This document shows, piece by piece, positions 28,805 to 40,344 of a stretch of DNA of 64,000 nt. The DNA is from Bacteroidia bacterium (GTDB taxonomy: Bacteria; Bacteroidota; Bacteroidia; UKL13-3): positions 1 to 64,000 of the forward strand of contig JAIOYZ010000017.1 of the NCBI GenBank assembly GCA_021740845.1, in the 5' to 3' direction. A program made the translations under genes and the position numbers. The notes under the pieces were generated by a model that was given only the letters and a program-made list of their open reading frames with translations, did no database searches and was not told the origin of the DNA. Numbering within the stretch: position 1 is the first letter of the stretch; every line of letters starts with the position of its first letter.

Positions 28805-30688
28805 TTATTTTTTCCCTAATTTAAAAAACTCCCCACATTCTCCAGCATACAATCTTTCAAGTGCTTTCCTAGTCTCATCACTATTCTTCATTTGATCGTG
28901 GTTTGTTCTTGGCATTATCCCAATGTATTGAGTATTCTTTGGAACAATATCCGTATTAACTTTAATTTTGTGACTTGCAGTTTCAGCAGATACAACACCA
29001 TCATTTGGCTTAAAGCCACCAACATTTCTCCAATAGGTAATTACAGTTTGAGTTCCAGAGCAAGGGCCAAATAACTTCTTCCCATTCTCGACAGTAAATT
29101 GCATATTGGCATAACTAACTGTACTAGGTAATGGATCGCATTGACTTTTTGTTGTAACTATAGTTCGTTCGGTTGTATAGGGAACTGCTGCGGGATGTCC
29201 TGGATTTCTATTGTCAATACAAGTTAAATCTTGAAAAATCTTGCATGTTGCCATATTTGTAGAGGTTTTTAAGCCTAATAAATCAGCTTGATAATATTCA
29301 TTTGCATTCGATAACCAAACCTTTGCACCTGCATAAGCTTGTTTGTTCTCATTGGCGGCATTTCTTTTAACCAAAGCAGCACTAGCCAAACTTGCCATAA
29401 GCCCACCATAAGCATACCTTTGAGTTAATACAAATGTACTTGCCATAGCAGTAAAAACCACAAAATTTCTGGCACTAATTTCTTCCTGCTCTTTTTCTAA
29501 CAATTCATTTGCATGAAAATCATTAATCATTGATGCCACTTTTATCTGTAATTGATCATCTTGGTCGTAGCCAAAAGCAGCTTGATTATTGCTTAAAATA
29601 TCCTCCCCTATTTTCAAACTACTGCTCATAAATCTCCACATTACAGGCTCCTCTTCCACACCATAAAACTGAACCACTGGAACTTTTAAGGTATATTCAG
29701 ATAAACCTTCTACATGGCCTGTGGCATCATTATAACCTGTTAAGAATGGAGAACCCACGTAAAAATCTTCGGTAGTTCTTTTGAAATAATTATCTAAGGC
29801 AAATGGAATAATGGTATTGCTAATTAAGTCGCAACCTTTTGAAATTGTCAAATCGGTCATTTTTTTTGAAATTAACAATTGTGTGACCAAATTGGAATTC
29901 ACTTTTGGTACAATTAGCGCCTTTGATAAATTTTTACAAGCCTCATCCATAAAAGCTGGAATTTTATTACCTAAGTTCGGTCTAACCTGATTTAATATTT
30001 GAGCGCCTGCATGAGGTGAACCAATGGTTACCAAGCCATGTGCGAAATTCTTATAACTAAATGGCTCTTGCTCCATTTTACGCAACCATTCTCTAGAAAC
30101 CATCCCACCCTGACTATGGGCTATAATAAAATCTCTTGGAGTTCTTTCTATAATTGGAACATTAGAATTGAAATAATTTTCCAAATCACCGGCAGCAAAG
30201 GTTATTCCAGCATCTTCACTATATAATTGGATTGCTGCAGAGGTGGAAGAACTAGTTCCACGATAACTACGTGCTTTTCTTGCATCAAATTTATTAGGTA
30301 TTCCAAATTGTGTGGCTTTTGCTGGTATGACTAAAGATTCGGTATTTCCATTTAATCCATGCAACCAAAAGATATTAATATCACCAGTAACTGGAGCCCA
30401 AGATTCTGTATTATCCACCCCAAACTTTTTCACCGGATTTTCATCTTGCGGATAACCTGGCGACCAGAAAATTTCTTTTCCAATCTTTGCTGGGCCGTCG
30501 CGCAAGCAGGGATCATTGGTGGGGAATTCTCTTATTTTTAAACCATACTTTTGCAACTCAATAGAGAGTGCTTGCTCGTCGGCAAATTTCACGGTGGTAG
30601 TATCTGGAGCTTCGGTTTGAGCCAAGCTAATTTTGCTAATTAATAATAGAGAAACAAACCCTATTAAAACGATATATTTATTTTTCAT
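28805..30688 (-). CDS. Secreted lipase-like alpha/beta hydrolase
   Basis: 627 residues with a signal peptide (MKNKYIVLIGFVSLLLISK then ISLAQ). The lipase core has INIFWLHGLNGNTESLV (~104-120, oxyanion region) and FIIAHSQGGMVSREWL with nucleophile Ser192, followed by HGLVTIGSPHAGAQI, the pattern of PGAP1-like and triacylglycerol lipases. A hydrophobic Ala-rich segment lies at ~415-445. The C-terminal ~150 residues form no domain I recognise; the candidate catalytic His may be in PRTNHDQM near ~600. It sits between a T9SS-sorted protein and the propeller lipoprotein. Confidence 0.82.
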   Translation of the reverse strand: MKNKYIVLIGFVSLLLISKISLAQTEAPDTTTVKFADEQALSIELQKYGLKIREFPTNDPCLRDGPAKIGKEIFWSPGYPQDENPVKKFGVDNTESWAPVTGDINIFWLHGLNGNTESLVIPAKATQFGIPNKFDARKARSYRGTSSSTSAAIQLYSEDAGITFAAGDLENYFNSNVPIIERTPRDFIIAHSQGGMVSREWLRKMEQEPFSYKNFAHGLVTIGSPHAGAQILNQVRPNLGNKIPAFMDEACKNLSKALIVPKVNSNLVTQLLISKKMTDLTISKGCDLISNTIIPFALDNYFKRTTEDFYVGSPFLTGYNDATGHVEGLSEYTLKVPVVQFYGVEEEPVMWRFMSSSLKIGEDILSNNQAAFGYDQDDQLQIKVASMINDFHANELLEKEQEEISARNFVVFTAMASTFVLTQRYAYGGLMASLASAALVKRNAANENKQAYAGAKVWLSNANEYYQADLLGLKTSTNMATCKIFQDLTCIDNRNPGHPAAVPYTTERTIVTTKSQCDPLPSTVSYANMQFTVENGKKLFGPCSGTQTVITYWRNVGGFKPNDGVVSAETASHKIKVNTDIVPKNTQYIGIMPRTNHDQMKNSDETRKALERLYAGECGEFFKLGKK

Positions 30689-30706
30689 GTTCGTGCTTTT
30701 AATTGA

Positions 30707-31732
30707 TTAATTTTTAATAAAACTTGCGTTCAATGTTTGTTGGTCGCTAGTGATTAACTGTACCGAATATTGCCCAGAAGACAAATTAGGTAGGTTCACC
30801 AAAAAGGTTTTTTGTCCGCCGTTGGAAACCGTTGTAAAGTTTCCAGTAATTACATTAATTACCTTTACACTGCTAATAGAAACATTGTCGTTTAAAGTGG
30901 CACTCACAGTAAATACACCGTCATTGGGGTTAGGATAAATTGCAATACTCGCTTCTTTATTTATCGCTTTATCTACTAAACCTCCATTATCTTGGATCTC
31001 ATAATTATTATAAAAAGTCATTTGGGTTTCTGTAATACATGGCCCATTGATAGAATACACAAAACGCTCCCTTTTGTTAATTTTCAAGAGGTAACCCTTA
31101 TTGGTTAAATAAGGTTCATATCCTTTTGTTTCCCTATTCTTAATTCCGCTCGAATCAATCCATTCTGTTACAATGGTATTGTTGTACTTATTAAAAATAG
31201 TTGTGTTAAGTGGAGTAACCATTTTAACTTCTCCATTTGCCATTGTACTTACTTGTACATTTTGAGTAGCCAAATAGGTAATTATGGCTGGATTAAACTC
31301 CGGAAACTCAGTTAAGCCTGGGTGGTAGCCATTAGTTTGAATACTTGTTTTTAACTCTGCTCTTCTATCTAATTGATCTTGGGAATAATCAAGCGTTTTG
31401 ATAAAAACATTGTCCTTATCATACAAATTCATCCCAGCACTCGAATAATTAAATCTTCTTGCCAAATGCATCCAATCTTTTTCATACTCGTTACTATCCA
31501 CTACTATGTCCATTACGGTCTCGTAATTTTGGTCGATAGTTTTGGTATAACTCTTTTCTACATATCTGAGCTCGTACTTGATTTTTTCCGTTTCACTCAG
31601 TTTTCGCATTCCGGCCGTATCAACTACTCCATAGTTGTACTCCAGAATCTTGTTTGTTTGCTTGTAAAGCAGGCTTTGCCCATAGGTTACTCCATGGATA
31701 AACAAAGCCAATGTTAGGGTAGATAACTTCAT
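30707..31732 (-). CDS. Secreted protein with type IX sorting domain
   Basis: 341 residues. Signal peptide MKLSTLTLALFIHGVTYGQ. Residues ~20-255 form no family I recognise. The C-terminal ~75 residues are a type A sorting domain: AIYPNPNDGVFTVSATL, VKVINVITG and LSSGQYSVQLITSDQ, which direct export across the outer membrane by the Bacteroidota type IX system and anchoring at the surface. First gene of the four-gene exported-protein run. Confidence 0.88.
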   Translation of the reverse strand: MKLSTLTLALFIHGVTYGQSLLYKQTNKILEYNYGVVDTAGMRKLSETEKIKYELRYVEKSYTKTIDQNYETVMDIVVDSNEYEKDWMHLARRFNYSSAGMNLYDKDNVFIKTLDYSQDQLDRRAELKTSIQTNGYHPGLTEFPEFNPAIITYLATQNVQVSTMANGEVKMVTPLNTTIFNKYNNTIVTEWIDSSGIKNRETKGYEPYLTNKGYLLKINKRERFVYSINGPCITETQMTFYNNYEIQDNGGLVDKAINKEASIAIYPNPNDGVFTVSATLNDNVSISSVKVINVITGNFTTVSNGGQKTFLVNLPNLSSGQYSVQLITSDQQTLNASFIKN

Positions 31733-33295: not shown

Positions 33296-33300
33296 ACTAG

Positions 33301-33372
<72 letters not shown>

Positions 33373-34184: not shown

Positions 34185-34823
34185 TTAACTTCTACTATTG
34201 ATTATTCTTATGGTTCTCTTTACTTGCCACTTTAATCTTTCATAAGAACCATTATCCAAGGCTCTTTGACCAGTAAGCATAGAAGTAAAAAAAACTGGTG
34301 TGTTATTCCATAAATACGTTCCTATTTCCTCATCAAATTTAAAGTCAAAATTTAACCAAGTATTATTGCCTCCAACTTTGTCCTTTCCAAGAAAGGTTCT
34401 CGCTAGGGTATTATTTACAATAATTATTTCAGGATTCGCAAGCTCTAATAATTTTTTACTGATTTGAAGTTGATCCCAAATAAATCCAACACCATTAGTC
34501 TTTGTAAGGATGTGGTTGACTTCACTTTGATTAGTTTCTCTAAAAAACAACAAGTCAATATGTGTCCAAGGGTAATTACAGTATTTTGAAACGTCAGCAA
34601 ATTTCTTGAAGTATTGATGGTTTTTACCATTGGGGTCTAATTCATAAACTTCTAATTTTCCGCTTTTATCATTTTCGGCATTCGCCGATGGGTTTAACCC
34701 AATAAACAAAAGTGCATTAGAGATTAATTCCTTAGGAAAGGCATAATTGAAATTGAATTCTTTATACAACGGGTTGTCTTTGATTTTATTCAATTCTCCC
34801 GTAATAAATTTTTCTACTTCCAT
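34185..34823 (-). CDS. Uracil-DNA-glycosylase-like-fold protein, unknown role
   Basis: 212 residues. LLFIGLNPSANAEND (~37-51) resembles the first active-site loop of the uracil-DNA glycosylase superfamily and of DUF1643 proteins; IIIVNNTLARTFLG fits the central strand and FTSMLTGQRALDNGSYERL the position of the last loop. The canonical HPS-type motif is not present, so base-excision activity cannot be claimed. 23 bp before it on the same strand ends the GGCT-like gene, so the two may be one transcript. Confidence 0.55.
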   Translation of the reverse strand: MEVEKFITGELNKIKDNPLYKEFNFNYAFPKELISNALLFIGLNPSANAENDKSGKLEVYELDPNGKNHQYFKKFADVSKYCNYPWTHIDLLFFRETNQSEVNHILTKTNGVGFIWDQLQISKKLLELANPEIIIVNNTLARTFLGKDKVGGNNTWLNFDFKFDEEIGTYLWNNTPVFFTSMLTGQRALDNGSYERLKWQVKRTIRIINSRS

Positions 34824-34846: not shown

Positions 34847-35482
34847 TTACTCACATTGTTGAATTAGAAATAGCAACTCTTCATAACTTCTTCCAATTCC
34901 TCCTGATTTCAATAAATATTCAACAATTTCTACATTTTCAATTCCAATAAATGTTTCTTTTATTCCCTTAATAATTGTACTTAAATATTCATCACTTGGC
35001 TTATTAAGTTCTTGTATATCATTTGCATTGGTAAAAGAATAGATTGAGAGCCCTTCTTGCTCTCCAAAATATATAATCTTACCATACCATGAATTTTCAT
35101 TAATCACAAAATTGCCAGTCTTTTTTGCTGCCTCGAAATCAATATTTACATCAGCATCGAAATTTGTTTCCTGCTTGAATATCTCAATAAATTGCTCCTT
35201 TGAAATTTGATATATTTTTGCAAGGGTATCACATTTATCTGATAATTTATTGCTGATAAAAGCAACACCCCCATTTTGCCAATTCCTTGATTTTTTAGCA
35301 AAATAAAGCGGGTAGCAAATAAAAATTTCCTGAATGTCTAAAGGAATGGTTTGATCCGAACACCCTTTTAATATTCTGGTTGCTCCTGTTGGTCTTCCAC
35401 CCTTGATATAACATAAGAATCTTTCAAATGACAAATTTGATCCATAACTTAAGTACCAGACATATTGACTTGGTTCAATCAT
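34847..35482 (-). CDS. Gamma-glutamylcyclotransferase-like fold protein
   Basis: 211 residues. YVWYLSYGSNLSFERFLCYI at the N-terminus is the YGSN signature of the GGCT/AIG2-like fold, which in known members releases 5-oxoproline from gamma-glutamyl compounds. FAKKSRNWQNGGVAFI follows at the position where this family continues. The catalytic Glu cannot be placed with certainty. It sits upstream of the glycosylase-like gene. It may be a metabolic enzyme or a repurposed fold in an accessory region. Confidence 0.65.
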   Translation of the reverse strand: MIEPSQYVWYLSYGSNLSFERFLCYIKGGRPTGATRILKGCSDQTIPLDIQEIFICYPLYFAKKSRNWQNGGVAFISNKLSDKCDTLAKIYQISKEQFIEIFKQETNFDADVNIDFEAAKKTGNFVINENSWYGKIIYFGEQEGLSIYSFTNANDIQELNKPSDEYLSTIIKGIKETFIGIENVEIVEYLLKSGGIGRSYEELLFLIQQCE

Positions 35483-35690: not shown

Positions 35691-36347
35691 ATGAAAATAG
35701 CCACATGGAACATAGAACGCCCTGTAAAGGATTCTACCCGAATTACCCAAATCCAAGAAATCCTCGATTCAATGGATGCTGACATTTTTTTCCTAACCGA
35801 AACCAATAAGTTTATTGATTTGGGCTCTCAGTATTTTTCCTTTCACACATCCGATTTATCAGATCAGATGTATTCCAAAGGGGAGGTAAGATCAAGCATC
35901 TATTCAAAATGCCCTTCTTTGGGTAAAATTAGAACGTTTAACGAAGAAACTGCGATTTGTGAGGTGCTTGATACTCCAAACGGAAAAATTGCATTATACG
36001 CTACCATAATTGGAATTTATGGAAATAGGCATACAAATTTCAAAACTGACCTTGAATTGCAAATGCAGGATTTTAAAGGAATTGGTAGCCAATATCCAGT
36101 ATGTATTGCTGGCGATTTTAATATCTCATTTGGCGATAATTATTATTTTACCAAGTATGGCAGGGATAAGTTGAATGAAGCTTTTGTTGAATTAGAACTG
36201 GTGAATCTGACTGAGAAAGTTGAAAATAATATTGACCATATCGTGGTTTCCGAAGGATTGGTTGGAGAAGGGAAGGTTGGGGTTGAAACTTGGAATATGG
36301 ATAAGACACTGAGCGATTATATTGGGGTTGTGGTCTTGAAGTTATAG
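35691..36347 (+). CDS. Exonuclease-endonuclease-phosphatase-fold protein
   Basis: 218 residues. EEP motifs in order: MKIATWNIERP (Asn7), DIFFLTETN (metal Glu37), IAGDFNISFGD (~140-150), NNIDHIVVS. The last motif, normally SDH with a catalytic His, reads LSDYIGVV here. The protein is short for the family. With the missing His, catalysis may be weak or altered. It is 61 bp upstream of the 557-residue nuclease-like gene on the same strand and may form one unit with it. Confidence 0.75.
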   Translation: MKIATWNIERPVKDSTRITQIQEILDSMDADIFFLTETNKFIDLGSQYFSFHTSDLSDQMYSKGEVRSSIYSKCPSLGKIRTFNEETAICEVLDTPNGKIALYATIIGIYGNRHTNFKTDLELQMQDFKGIGSQYPVCIAGDFNISFGDNYYFTKYGRDKLNEAFVELELVNLTEKVENNIDHIVVSEGLVGEGKVGVETWNMDKTLSDYIGVVVLKL

Positions 36348-36408
36348 ATTTTTGTATTTTTAACCAATACTAGCAATTTATTAGCCAATAAAATTAGAAT
36401 AAATTTAA

Positions 36409-38082
36409 ATGAGAAAATTCAAGTTTCAAATGGTTTTAGATTATGAATCAATTCATGGTAAACCTCCACCCAAAAACAGATTAGAATTAATAGATGGGTT
36501 AAATTTAAGATCTCTGCTTATTGAGCTAGCTGGAATTAATTACAGGTTAAAACCAAAAGACAAATTTCATATTGATGTCTCGTTTGAAAAACAAATTGAA
36601 CTACTTTCTTATTATACAAAAGATGTCTCACATTATTTCAATTCCCCACATATTCCAAATAGAGAATCATTCAACAAAGAAAACTATCCTATCATTTTTA
36701 ACAGATATGCCAGTTTGTTGGCAATTGAGGAAATACTAAGCATTCCAAATGTTGACCTTTTATTGGAAGAACCAACTTCAAAGCCAGTTGATTATTTAAA
36801 ATTTATAGATTATTACCTCGCAATAAATTATGAAATAACCCTAATTAACCAAGAGGAATCTGATGAATCAAAAATCACATTAGAGACACTTAATCCAAAG
36901 TCACTGCCATTAAATGAGGCAATGATATTTACCGATCAAATATTTACCCCGTATCGTGGGCTAAAACTATTTGATTACTTATTGAGTGAATCAAATTATC
37001 GTAATGAACTACTTGATTATTTTAAGGTTTACTACAAAGTAGAGCCAACCTATTTTTTATTCCGAATTTTAGGATTTGTTGCATACGATGAAAAAGAAAA
37101 TATTGATTTTCATTTTATTTTCAATATCCCTGATTTAGACATTCCGTTTTTTAATTCACTTTCAGGAAAATACTCAGGATATCCAGTTAATAAGCTTATG
37201 TCGATTAAAAAATACCCATTTATAAAAGTGGGTAAAAATAAATTCATATTAGCAGATTTATCCCTTTTGATTGAAAAGGTTTTTAATCAATTAACAAATG
37301 ACCTTTGGTTTGATTATTTATCACAAATAAAAATAGATAATGGAAAGAGTAAGTATAAATATGAAACATATAGAGGCGAAATTGGGTATTTCTATGAAAA
37401 CTACTTGAAAAACTTACTGACTGATTCCCTTGGAAATTACAAGTATTTCAAAATTGCATTATTTGATGATTTGAAGCTAAAAACAAGGGACAATAGGGAA
37501 TTTACAGATATTTATATCCGCTACTTAAAAAATGTTTTTATTGGTGAGGTTAAGTCTGGAATAATTTCTGATGAGGATAAACTAGGAGGTGACATTATTT
37601 CGTTGTACAAAAACGATAGAGATAGTTTTTTTAAGAGGTTTGGCTTAAACCAATTGGTTAACGCAATAAGTACATTGAAGTCTGTTGTCCATGAATTTGA
37701 TGGTAAATTTGAATTGAACCAAACCAAGAAAATATTTCCTGCGATTATAGTAGCTGACAAGGTTTTCCAAACCCCGTTAATGGCGCATATATTTAACAAT
37801 AAGTTTCAAGAAATGTGCAAAAACATTGTTGATAAAAAATTACAAATAATGCCATTGACTTTAATACATATCAATGATTTCGAACGATTACAAGATTCTT
37901 ATTCTAAAAACCCAATGGATTTTTGGAAACTTATTGAATTAAATTTTAAAGGTGAAAAAGTGATACCCCCGTTTCATCAAACTATTAATAATAACTGGGC
38001 AGGTAGGGAATATCCAAAAAAGATTATTGAAGAATTAATGGATTTAGTAAAAGAACACAATCCAGAAGGTTATGATAAGTAA
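36409..38082 (+). CDS. PD-(D/E)XK-nuclease-like protein, 557 residues, unknown
   Basis: The first ~310 residues form no domain I recognise; they are rich in Tyr, Phe and Leu and mainly helical. From ~325, GEIGYFYENYLKNLLTD precedes a D-x12-E-x-K motif: Asp367 (FTDIYI), Glu380 and Lys382 (GEVKSG), the core of PD-(D/E)XK nucleases. The remainder (AIIVADKVFQTPLM) may complete that fold. No helicase or methylase is adjacent. It is followed after 14 bp by the double-module gene, so the two are probably co-transcribed. Role unknown; a DNA-targeting function in defence or mobile-element biology is inference. Confidence 0.6.
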   Translation: MRKFKFQMVLDYESIHGKPPPKNRLELIDGLNLRSLLIELAGINYRLKPKDKFHIDVSFEKQIELLSYYTKDVSHYFNSPHIPNRESFNKENYPIIFNRYASLLAIEEILSIPNVDLLLEEPTSKPVDYLKFIDYYLAINYEITLINQEESDESKITLETLNPKSLPLNEAMIFTDQIFTPYRGLKLFDYLLSESNYRNELLDYFKVYYKVEPTYFLFRILGFVAYDEKENIDFHFIFNIPDLDIPFFNSLSGKYSGYPVNKLMSIKKYPFIKVGKNKFILADLSLLIEKVFNQLTNDLWFDYLSQIKIDNGKSKYKYETYRGEIGYFYENYLKNLLTDSLGNYKYFKIALFDDLKLKTRDNREFTDIYIRYLKNVFIGEVKSGIISDEDKLGGDIISLYKNDRDSFFKRFGLNQLVNAISTLKSVVHEFDGKFELNQTKKIFPAIIVADKVFQTPLMAHIFNNKFQEMCKNIVDKKLQIMPLTLIHINDFERLQDSYSKNPMDFWKLIELNFKGEKVIPPFHQTINNNWAGREYPKKIIEELMDLVKEHNPEGYDK

Positions 38083-38096
38083 TTGATCAACCACTT

Positions 38097-39323
38097 ATGA
38101 AAAAATCCCACCTACAATTATTAGCCGATTTTGCTGATGCCAGTGATGAGCTATTAAAACTAAAAATAATCACTACCGACAGTTTTACAGGTGAAATAGG
38201 TGAATTTATTGCCTGTAATCATTTTAAACTCATAAAAGCCCCCAAGGTAACAAAAGAAATAGACGCAACAGATACAAATGGAAATCATTATCAAGTAAAA
38301 TCAAAAGTAGTTTCAAAGGGCAATTTTGGGTATAGAATTTCAGGTTTGAATCCAAAAGCTTTCAAATATCTGGTTGTGGTGTATTTTGATGAATTGTACA
38401 AACCATTGAAAATACTGAAAATTGAATCAAAGGCTATTTCTGGATCTGAGTATAAAATTCCTGCTAATATTTCATCTAATCAGAATATTTCAATAATTGC
38501 CGAGTCTTCCATCAAGATTTCGGCAAAAGTAAAATCAGCCATTACAAGATTTGCGGAATCCTATAATGCACTCAAAACTCAAAATATTATCCGTACAAGA
38601 CATATTGTAGGTGATTTGGGGGAATACTATGCTTGTGAGAAGTTAGGGCTTAAAATCAATGAAAAAAGCAATGAAAAGGGCATTGATGCGATTCATCCGA
38701 CTAATGGTTTAACGTTTGAAGTAAAAACCAGACGAGTTTATCAAAGTGAAAGAAGAGAAGGTCAAGGCAGGAGGTTAAATGGACTTACTGGTAAAACAGC
38801 AGATTATTTGGTAGTAGTAACATTGGATCGGGAATTCAAATGCTCTGGTATGTGGATTATGCCCATGAAGAATATTGTTAATCCAAAATCAGCACATTTA
38901 ACCATTGTAAATAATACCAAAGGTGTTGAAAGTGTTGTGCCAAGTCAGATTGAATGGTTGAAAACAGCTAGTAAATTCAATGGATTTAGCAAAAAGGGAA
39001 TAGAAATATTAAAAGAAATTTCAACACAAGAAAAATTACCAACCAATATTAAATTAGTAGCCAAAAGAAAGGTTAGGGCAAGGTTTAAGGAGAAACCCAA
39101 GCGAAGAAAGTTCAGTTGGATGAAAGTTGATGATTTTAGTATAGATGATGTTGAAAGTGCAGAAATGGATAACGGACATTTAGAAAACTACGAATCAACA
39201 ATTTATTCCCCAAAAAAGGATGAATCTGACTTTTCAAATTTGATAAACTTGTTTTTGGGAGTAATTAAATGGCTTTTAATTGCAGCAATTTGTATGAGCG
39301 TTTTCAAATCATTTGTTTTATAA
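38097..39323 (+). CDS. Two nuclease-like modules with membrane tail
   Basis: 408 residues. Module 1 (~25-115): GEIGEFIACNHF with Glu36, Asp56, Gln66 and Lys68 (YQVKSK), a D-x9-Q-x-K core. Module 2 (~165-255): GDLGEYYACEKLGL, Asp197, Glu208 and Lys210 (FEVKTR), a D-x10-E-x-K core. The two are clearly related repeats; each is followed by a strand YLVVV. After a basic segment (KRKVRARFKEKPKRRKFSW, ~322-340) the protein ends with a single hydrophobic helix (~383-408). A membrane-tethered double PD-(D/E)XK protein is unusual; I know no named system of this shape. Confidence 0.65.
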   Translation: MKKSHLQLLADFADASDELLKLKIITTDSFTGEIGEFIACNHFKLIKAPKVTKEIDATDTNGNHYQVKSKVVSKGNFGYRISGLNPKAFKYLVVVYFDELYKPLKILKIESKAISGSEYKIPANISSNQNISIIAESSIKISAKVKSAITRFAESYNALKTQNIIRTRHIVGDLGEYYACEKLGLKINEKSNEKGIDAIHPTNGLTFEVKTRRVYQSERREGQGRRLNGLTGKTADYLVVVTLDREFKCSGMWIMPMKNIVNPKSAHLTIVNNTKGVESVVPSQIEWLKTASKFNGFSKKGIEILKEISTQEKLPTNIKLVAKRKVRARFKEKPKRRKFSWMKVDDFSIDDVESAEMDNGHLENYESTIYSPKKDESDFSNLINLFLGVIKWLLIAAICMSVFKSFVL

Positions 39324-39622: not shown

Positions 39623-40344
39623 TTGTTGCCGCCATCAATTGGTCAGTTATCAATTGACAAATTACAAGACACTGATAATAAGAAAAATACAATTGGCCAG
39701 GCAGTGACTGACCAATTGTCTAACACAAACAATTCAACTAAATTAAGTACCTATTACCGCAACATTCTTGAACGTATTTCCTATACCCACTTCATTGAAC
39801 TCATTAAAATTGAGAAAAAAACCAAACGAACTTTTTTCGAATTACTAATACTAAAAACTACTCCATCTGTAAAAGAATTCAAAAGGCAAATAAATACTTT
39901 GGCTTATGAACGAGTGGGATTATCAGAAAACTTAGAACTTGCCAATGAAAAATTATTGGGGAAAATTACGCCAGAATTACCAGAACAGGCAATCAAAATA
40001 TATATACTTTTGATTTTTTAGGGTTGAAGGCAGATAGTTTAATTGAAGAAAAAGATATAGAATCTGCTTTGCTTAATCATTTGCAAGAATTTATTCAAGA
40101 ACTTGGCTTAGGTTTTTGTTTTGAGAGTCGCCAAAAGCGTATACTATTTGATGATGAGTATTTCTTTATAGATTTGGTGTTCTATCACCGAATCTTAAAA
40201 TGCCATGTAATTGTTGAGCTCAAAGCTGATTGTTTTAAACATGAGCATCTTTCACAACTTAATACCTATGTGGCATATTACAATGCGGAAATAAAACGTA
40301 ACGATGATAACACTCAAAGCAAATTAGCGAACGCTGTTCGTTGA
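39623..40344 (+). pseudogene. Broken DUF1016 (YhcG-type) PDDEXK nuclease gene
   Basis: Part 1 (39623-40021) has THFIELIKIEKKTKRTFFELL and VKEFKRQINTLAYERVGLS, typical of the DUF1016 N-terminal domain. Part 2 (from ~40000, +1 frame) continues NIYTFDFLGLKAD, then LLNHLQEFIQELGLGFCFE, FIDLVFYHRILKCHVIVELK, the nuclease domain. A single-base loss near 39985-40000 separates them, and the family's C-terminal part after TYVAYYNAE is replaced by unrelated residues. The N-terminal ~70 residues of full-length members are also absent. Intact members occur beside restriction-modification loci; this copy is not functional as a single protein. Confidence 0.75.

What the first reader, a model, noticed from the sequence alone, without database searches (positions are those of the whole stretch)
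35691..39323. Candidate undescribed nuclease system: EEP-fold protein, 557-residue PD-(D/E)XK-like protein, membrane-tailed double-nuclease protein
Three same-strand genes, spaced 61 and 14 bp, each with nuclease features: motifs WN/TE/GDFN in the first, D367/E380/K382 in the second, and two cores D56-Q66-K68 and D197-E208-K210 in the third, which ends in a membrane helix. They lie in an island next to an initiator tRNA, with a broken DUF1016 nuclease gene beside them. I recognise no named defence system of this composition.
Basis: partly seen in the sequence, partly recalled or inferred. Interest (0 to 1): 0.72.

Follow-up and report, generated by a model that had tools for sequence, protein, structure and literature searches.

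The report
Single-chain, membrane-tailed double restriction nuclease
Three neighbouring nuclease-like genes in a bacterial chromosome look like independently acquired genes rather than one new immune system, but the third encodes an unusual protein: two restriction-enzyme domains fused in one chain with a probable membrane anchor at its end, which could cut incoming viral DNA.

Summary
The three genes and the features described are real. The claim that they form one undescribed system is not supported: in 25 loci carrying a relative of one gene, none carried a second. Gene 1 is an ordinary EEP-fold protein whose SDH motif, kept in five of five relatives, reads SDY here, so its catalysis is doubtful. 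Gene 2 is an orphan PD-(D/E)XK-type family, six catalytic-type residues invariant in 14 sequences, with neighbours that mostly differ from locus to locus. Gene 3 is the real find: a tandem duplication of the BisI/Eco15I restriction domain, both catalytic sets complete, in one chain with a C-terminal hydrophobic helix. Two small gut-bacterial plasmids carry the same layout; a third distinct tandem sequence lacks the helix. NhoI and Eco15I are homodimers with one nuclease domain per chain, so gene 3 is best read as a covalent pseudo-dimer that cuts incoming DNA, perhaps modified DNA, perhaps at the membrane. Modification dependence is uncertain: methyl-pocket residues are only partly kept, although no C5 methyltransferase was found in the host genome. 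Structure predictions failed (pLDDT 40 and 37). Verdict: a new variant of a known kind; no new three-gene system.

The parts
35691..36347 (+). Gene 1: EEP-fold protein, 218 aa; N7, E37, D142 and N144 kept, but the SDH motif reads SDY (Y210), so catalysis is doubtful
   Evidence: PF03372 1.4e-9; alignment with relatives
36409..38082 (+). Gene 2: orphan PD-(D/E)XK-type family, 557 aa; E330, D367, Y369, E380, K382, Q415 invariant in 14 sequences
   Evidence: no family in Pfam, PADLOC, NCBIfam at E<=1, only E 0.11 in PHROGs; alignment A4
38097..38546 (+). Gene 3, N-terminal BisI/Eco15I-like nuclease domain (about residues 1-150), E36/D56/Q66/K68
   Evidence: PDB 8q5m 3.2e-5 for this half alone; three-sequence profile, best stretch 7-117, 1e-10; PADLOC PDLC03205 best stretch 8-101 (whole-protein E 1e-12)
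38526..39011 (+). Gene 3, C-terminal BisI/Eco15I-like nuclease domain (about residues 144-305), E176/D197/E208/K210
   Evidence: PF22522 DUF6998 best stretch 164-256 (whole-protein E 2.2e-14); PDB 8q5m best stretch 152-267 (1.1e-5); PADLOC PDLC03212 best stretch 156-267 (whole-protein E 4.8e-23); but no PDB hit at E<=1 when this half was searched alone
39231..39320 (+). Gene 3, C-terminal membrane helix (about residues 379-408), predicted
   Evidence: hydropathy maximum 2.35 at 385; helix 379-407, block pLDDT 77, 90, 82; hydrophobic tail also in the plasmid homologue, 3.0 at 320
39623..40344 (+). Broken DUF1016/YhcG (PADLOC PDC-S02) gene in two frames, incomplete
   Evidence: PF17761 positions 86-137 of 137 (below its cut-off) and PF06250 positions 18-109 of 157; frames differ; PDC-S02 models
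33300..33372 (-). tRNA-Met (cat), initiator-like; its 5' end faces the islet
   Evidence: ARAGORN; sequence

Best explanation
The block is part of a lineage-specific, low-GC islet that has collected independent DNA-targeting genes; it is not one machine. The functional centre is gene 3, a single-chain pseudo-dimer of BisI/Eco15I-type PD-(D/E)XK restriction domains with a predicted membrane tail. Shown by sequence: tandem homology to BisI-family domains, both complete catalytic sets, and a C-terminal hydrophobic helix in two of the three distinct tandem sequences found (the window's included). Inferred: the two domains pair like the Eco15I/NhoI homodimer, each cutting one strand of incoming DNA, with the host spared because it lacks the modified target, because the enzyme is held at the inner membrane, or both. 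Gene 2 is probably an independent nuclease of another defence-associated family, and gene 1 a passenger EEP protein, perhaps inactive.
For: Independence: each of 25 relative-bearing loci holds only one of the three genes. The 50%-identical gene 2 is in G024, which has no gene 3 match; the 54%-identical gene 3 is in G035, which has no gene 2 match. Gene 3: Eco15I (8q5m) 1e-10 and NhoI (8q5n) 2.7e-6 by profile, best stretch in the N-terminal half; whole protein against Eco15I 1.1e-5, best stretch in the C-terminal half; PADLOC mREase_II 4.8e-23; internal duplication 4e-12. E36/D56/Q66/K68 align with Eco15I E49/D69/Q79/K81, each of which abolished activity when changed (PMC11347163 section 21 and construct passage). 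All eight catalytic residues are the same in the window protein and its two homologues, 55% and 52% identical. The two-domain-plus-helix layout is also on two 7.4-kb mobilizable plasmids, of Parabacteroides and Phocaeicola, with no methyltransferase in their (possibly incomplete) gene tables. The host genome has 0 matches to C5 methyltransferase PF00145, while 10 of 14 control genomes ring. Islet: GC 31.4% against 35.9%; none of ten flank neighbourhoods read from same-genus genomes carries the genes.
Against: Modification dependence is doubtful: NhoI Arg84/Ser98/Arg101 correspond to K70/S82/N85 in the N-domain and R212/N228/T231 in the C-domain (the C-domain mapping is mine), and the (H/R)(V/I/T/M) motif lies beyond the aligned region. 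The third tandem sequence (G035, 311 aa) has no membrane helix and lies 82 bp before a weakly N6_Mtase-like ORF. One of five single-domain relatives looked at lies directly before a C5 methyltransferase, so the wider family also occurs beside methyltransferases. The C-terminal half alone finds no PDB chain. No confident structure. Only three distinct tandem sequences were found. The 61- and 14-bp gaps allow co-transcription.
Confidence: 0.6

Rival explanations
1. Genes 2 and 3 (or all three) form one new multi-gene nuclease defence system, with gene 3 holding the complex at the membrane and gene 2 adding a second nuclease.
For: Same strand, gaps 61 and 14 bp; all nuclease-type; low-GC islet beside a broken DUF1016 gene; some gene 2 relatives lie among defence genes (L010, by eye; L048).
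Against: 0 of 25 relative-bearing loci hold a second member; homologues have neighbours other than these genes; gene 1 lacks the SDH histidine that five of five relatives keep.
Confidence: 0.1
2. Gene 3 is a conventional PvuII-like Type II enzyme whose protecting methyltransferase is elsewhere in the genome or was lost.
For: [quoted passage not shown] one of five single-domain relatives lies beside a dcm-type methyltransferase; the G035 homologue is followed by a weakly N6_Mtase-like ORF.
Against: No PF00145 match in the host genome; no methyltransferase seen by eye among the ORFs of 30-46 kb; none in the gene tables of the 7.4-kb plasmids with the same gene, tables that may be incomplete. N4/N6 methyltransferases were not searched genome-wide.
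Confidence: 0.2
3. The genes are decaying passengers with no present function in this strain.
For: The neighbouring DUF1016 gene is broken; gene 1 has lost the SDH histidine.
Against: Genes 2 and 3 have open frames with the catalytic-type residues kept.
Confidence: 0.1

Closest known systems
[quoted passage not shown]
   Same: homologous PD-(D/E)XK domain with the E-D-(Q/E)xK catalytic set; sequence hits to 8q5m and 8q5n
   Different: two nuclease domains in one chain instead of a homodimer with one per chain; a C-terminal hydrophobic helix instead of the HNH-like extra domain reported for Eco15I (PMC4926085 passage); methyl-pocket residues only partly kept
SNIPE membrane-bound nuclease (PMC13190303)
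   Same: a nuclease held at the membrane that could meet DNA on entry (analogy only)
   Different: SNIPE has an N-terminal membrane helix, DUF4041 and a GIY-YIG nuclease (passages); Pfam found neither domain in gene 3
Pfam DUF6998 (PF22522)
   Same: Pfam matches two stretches of gene 3
   Different: family of unknown function in Pfam; the five non-tandem relatives read here are single-domain ORFs of 138-164 aa
PD-(D/E)XK nuclease superfamily (for gene 2)
   Same: invariant E / D / ExK / Q pattern
   Different: no sequence hit to a named family; fold not confirmed

Membership tests
BisI family | Sequence homology to Eco15I/NhoI nuclease domain | tested here: met
   8q5m 1e-10, 8q5n 2.7e-6; PADLOC mREase_II; C-terminal half alone gave no PDB hit
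BisI family | Catalytic E, D, (Q/E)xK residues shown essential in Eco15I | tested here: met
   E36/D56/Q66/K68 and E176/D197/E208/K210 the same in three sequences, the window's included; the C-domain has E where Eco15I and NhoI have Q
BisI family | External methyl-pocket arginine (NhoI Arg84; replaced by T or V in about half of the family) | tested here: inconclusive
   R212 in the C-domain, K70 in the N-domain
BisI family | Internal methyl-pocket arginine (NhoI Arg101 / Eco15I Arg98) | tested here: not met
   N85 and T231 at the aligned sites; so filed as BisI-like by domain, not as a BisI-specificity enzyme
[quoted passage not shown]
   beyond the aligned region
BisI family | Cleavage depends on 5mC in GCNGC | not testable with these tools
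   needs purified protein
BisI family | Homodimer with one nuclease domain per chain, as in the NhoI and Eco15I_Ntd crystals | tested here: not met
   two domains in one chain
SNIPE | DUF4041 plus GIY-YIG | tested here: not met
   no such Pfam match in gene 3
Conserved multi-gene defence system | Recurrent co-occurrence of the genes | tested here: not met
   0 of 25 relative-bearing loci
EEP (PF03372) nuclease | Fold family | tested here: met
   1.4e-9, above the cut-off
EEP (PF03372) nuclease | SDH catalytic histidine (role recalled) | tested here: not met
   SDY in the window, SDH in five of five relatives
PD-(D/E)XK superfamily (gene 2) | Invariant E-D-ExK-Q residues | tested here: met
[quoted passage not shown]
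   AlphaFold mean pLDDT 36.7; no PDB sequence hit better than E 0.52

The most novel reading that the evidence does not exclude
Gene 3 represents a distinct restriction strategy: a covalent heterodimer of two diverged restriction domains, recognising an asymmetric site, tail-anchored so that it meets DNA as it crosses the inner membrane, with self and non-self told apart by location as well as by, or instead of, methylation. The only tandem copy without the helix is also the only one with a (weakly) methyltransferase-like neighbour, as this would predict, but that rests on three sequences.
Probability: 0.2. Interest if true: 0.72.

Novelty: new variant of a known kind. Interest (0 to 1): 0.42.

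Why it matters
NhoI and Eco15I, the solved enzymes of this fold, are homodimers that read a near-symmetric site. A natural single-chain version with two diverged, complete active sites and a membrane anchor, also present on two small mobilizable gut plasmids, would link restriction with the recently described idea of cutting DNA during entry (SNIPE), and would be a ready-made scaffold for asymmetric site recognition. Gene 2 gives a nuclease-like family that none of the four protein-family libraries searched matches convincingly.

Tried and rejected
Rejected: a three-gene system (no co-occurrence); classical tRNA-3'-end integration (islet on the 5' side, no tRNA repeat listed, and no integrase seen by eye among the ORFs of 30-46 kb); gene 3 as a known phage gene (0 phage records; no relative among the viral-contig candidates).

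Led nowhere: AlphaFold on gene 3 alone (pLDDT 39.9) and on gene 2 with two sequences (36.7), so no fold search was run; the genome-contig scan for gene 2 returned one locus, with the same protein as G024; viral scans for gene 2 relatives and the plasmid search with gene 2 itself found none; the phage search with a gene 2 relative found none; Pfam and PADLOC gave gene 2 relatives only scattered weak hits to different families (best 2.7e-4, below its cut-off); profile-profile comparison of gene 2 with gene 3's C-domain gave no match, which is not evidence of difference; promoter- and terminator-like sites were at chance level. The PDB search of the C-domain alone found nothing at E<=1.

Not done: genome-wide search for N4/N6 methyltransferases in the host; six of the eight Hymenobacter plasmid hits were not opened; G414 and G230 were not examined further; only 20 of the 90 plasmid records were listed; L078 to L082 were fetched but not analysed.
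Full report
Observation. The block has 31.4% GC against 35.9% for the rest of the window; 7% of overlapping windows of the same length are as low. The tRNA is a tRNA-Met(cat) with initiator hallmarks (hallmarks recalled), but the islet lies on its 5' side. The DUF1016 gene at 39623-40344 is broken: two pieces in different frames covering only parts of PF17761 and PF06250.

Setting. From same-genus genomes I read four neighbourhoods of era with its tRNA-Met and six of lptB with the next gene (names by eye). None carries genes 1-3. What lies beyond the tRNA or beyond lptB differs from the window's islet; one era neighbourhood (L015) carries relatives of the window's genes at about 27.5-31.7 kb, two lptB neighbourhoods share a tRNA-Met, and one (L014) ends at a contig end after 5 kb. 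So the stretch is lineage-specific. This does not by itself prove insertion, because the two flanks are not adjacent in the relatives read.

Gene 1. EEP family PF03372, 1.4e-9. Full-length relatives are in 3 of 61 other genomes of the order, plus one fragment, and on 2 plasmid records; none of the five loci read has gene 2 or 3. One relative follows a type I restriction-like gene (L072, by eye). The SDH motif of five of five relatives reads SDY in the window; since that histidine is catalytic in EEP enzymes (recalled), the protein may be inactive.

Gene 2. No match at E<=1 in Pfam, PADLOC or NCBIfam, only E 0.11 in PHROGs, and no PDB sequence better than E 0.52 by profile. By single-sequence search it occurs in 1 of 63 other genomes of the order and 4 of 394 others of the phylum sample. 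A profile of six sequences finds 14 of those 394; four of the 14 contributed to the profile, one match is a 265-residue frame and one is weak and partial (E 4.6e-4). A relative finds 8 plasmid records, all Hymenobacter, annotated as hypothetical protein, and 0 phages. In a 14-sequence alignment ten columns are invariant, among them E330, D367, Y369, E380, K382 and Q415, the signature of a PD-(D/E)XK nuclease. Neighbourhoods mostly differ: mobilisation- and Tra-like genes (by eye), a PtuA-like gene (3.6e-216), an AAA/STAND-like ATPase with type I restriction-like genes (by eye), AbiEii with conjugation genes on a plasmid. Exceptions: two genomes share a 339-347 aa gene directly downstream, and the two Hymenobacter plasmids read share their upstream genes. 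This fits a stand-alone or loosely associated, mobile, possibly defensive gene. The AlphaFold model is not usable (pLDDT 36.7).

Gene 3. Pfam finds DUF6998 in two stretches, 2.2e-14 for the whole protein, PADLOC finds mREase_II at 4.8e-23, and the PDB finds Eco15I at 1.1e-5, best stretch in the C-terminal half. A three-sequence profile raises this to 1e-10 for Eco15I and 2.7e-6 for NhoI, best stretch in the N-terminal half. The N-terminal half alone finds Eco15I at 3.2e-5; the C-terminal half alone finds nothing at E<=1. The two halves are 36% identical over 97 residues, E 4e-12. Eco15I E49, D69, Q79 and K81, each needed for activity (PMC11347163 section 21, and construct passage), correspond to E36, D56, Q66, K68; I derived a numbering offset of 5 between chain and paper from the alignment. 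The C-terminal half has E176, D197, E208, K210. All eight are the same in the window protein, the G035 homologue and the plasmid homologue. Both halves begin with a stretch upstream of the core that aligns to Eco15I (N-half) or to the other half; in Eco15I and NhoI helix alpha0 there contributes most of the dimer contacts (PMC11347163 sections 19-20). A covalent pseudo-dimer is therefore the natural reading, but it is inference.

Tail. The window protein has a hydrophobic segment from 385 (mean 2.35) and the 338-aa plasmid homologue one from 320 (3.0); the 311-aa G035 homologue has none (maximum 1.31, at 92, inside the first domain). The plasmid homologue is on two 7.4-kb mobilizable plasmids, of Parabacteroides distasonis and Phocaeicola vulgatus, identical in protein, with no methyltransferase in gene tables that may be incomplete; the next gene, 277 aa, matches no family.

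Distribution of gene 3. Tandem relatives: 1 of 63 other genomes of the order; 0 of 394 of the phylum sample, where two genomes have single-domain relatives; 0 of 294 of the class sample, two single-domain. Among 72,556 plasmid records, 90 match the plasmid homologue but only 2 over at least 80% of it; 20 of the 90 were listed. Pfam DUF6998 itself is in 2 of 276 other phylum genomes, single-domain. 0 of 50,697 phage records and no viral-contig relative.

Co-occurrence. I searched 25 loci (15 with gene 2 relatives, 5 with gene 3 relatives, 5 with gene 1 relatives; two of the gene 3 loci are near-identical plasmids) with a gene 2 profile, a gene 3 profile and gene 1. Each held only the gene that brought it in; only the window holds all three. 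24 of the loci are 7.4-17 kb and one is 5.5 kb; some end at contig ends. G035 has both a gene 1 and a gene 3 homologue, on different contigs. G120 has a gene 2 relative and a single-domain DUF6998 protein about 0.5 Mb apart.

Mechanism and its weak step. What spares the host? The BisI reading (modified DNA only) is supported by no C5 methyltransferase in the host genome (0 matches to PF00145; 10 of 14 control genomes ring), none seen by eye near the gene and none listed on the plasmids. It is weakened by the pocket residues: NhoI Arg84, Ser98 and Arg101 (PMC11347163 sections 22-23) correspond to K70, S82, N85 and R212, N228, T231 (the C-domain mapping is mine by way of the N/C alignment). The alternative is control by location at the membrane, as shown for SNIPE, a different protein (PMC13190303, outline, abstract and passages). 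A conventional Type II enzyme with a distant or lost methyltransferase remains possible: one of five single-domain relatives directly precedes a dcm-type gene, and the tail-less G035 homologue precedes a weakly N6_Mtase-like ORF (5e-4, just below the Pfam cut-off) by 82 bp.

Literature. Searches for Eco15I/NhoI, membrane-anchored anti-phage nucleases, BisI with single-chain or tandem, BisI/McrBC with membrane terms, DUF6998 (0 papers) and SNIPE: in what I saw of them there was no report of a tandem or membrane-tailed BisI-family enzyme. I read the outline, passages and sections 19-23 and 25 of PMC11347163, passages of PMC4926085, PMC8281217 and PMC12707154, and the outline and passages of PMC13190303; for the other papers I saw search listings only. 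Supplements could not be read. [quoted passage not shown]

Verdict. Ordinary as a three-gene system; of moderate interest because gene 3 is a new architectural variant of BisI-type restriction domains.

Noticed in passing
35691-36347: The EEP gene has SDY (Y210) where five of five relatives have SDH, so it may be catalytically dead.
   Followed up: yes
39623-40344: DUF1016/YhcG (PDC-S02) gene in two pieces in different frames, also incomplete relative to the family profiles.
   Followed up: partly
34185-34823 and 34847-35482 (- strand): Two proteins with no match in Pfam or NCBIfam at E<=1 (the second has a weak PDC-S03 hit, 0.013); by eye they resemble a uracil-glycosylase-like and a gamma-glutamylcyclotransferase-like protein (not tested).
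   Followed up: no
L010 7189-9946 and L011 7614-10320: In two genomes a gene 2 relative is directly followed by the same 339-347 aa protein (weak DUF613 match), possibly a two-gene unit.
   Followed up: partly
L048 277-12768: A gene 2 relative in an island with a PtuA (Septu)-like ATPase (3.6e-216) and a 1348-aa protein with no convincing family.
   Followed up: partly
L060 1447-3291: A single-domain BisI-like protein (mREase_II 5.2e-62) directly before a dcm-type C5 methyltransferase, although PADLOC labels the family methyl-directed.
   Followed up: partly
L020 2037-4437 (- strand): The tail-less tandem homologue of gene 3 lies 82 bp before a weakly N6_Mtase-like ORF; no methyltransferase was seen beside the helix-bearing copies.
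   Followed up: partly
L072 1339-5814: A gene 1 relative follows a type I restriction-like 1025-aa gene and a small metalloprotease-like gene (by eye).
   Followed up: no
28805-31732 (- strand): A gene pair (Por_Secre_tail on the 341-aa protein) whose relatives (48-52% identical) lie near era and tRNA-Met in genome G001 (L015), in the opposite orientation relative to era.
   Followed up: no
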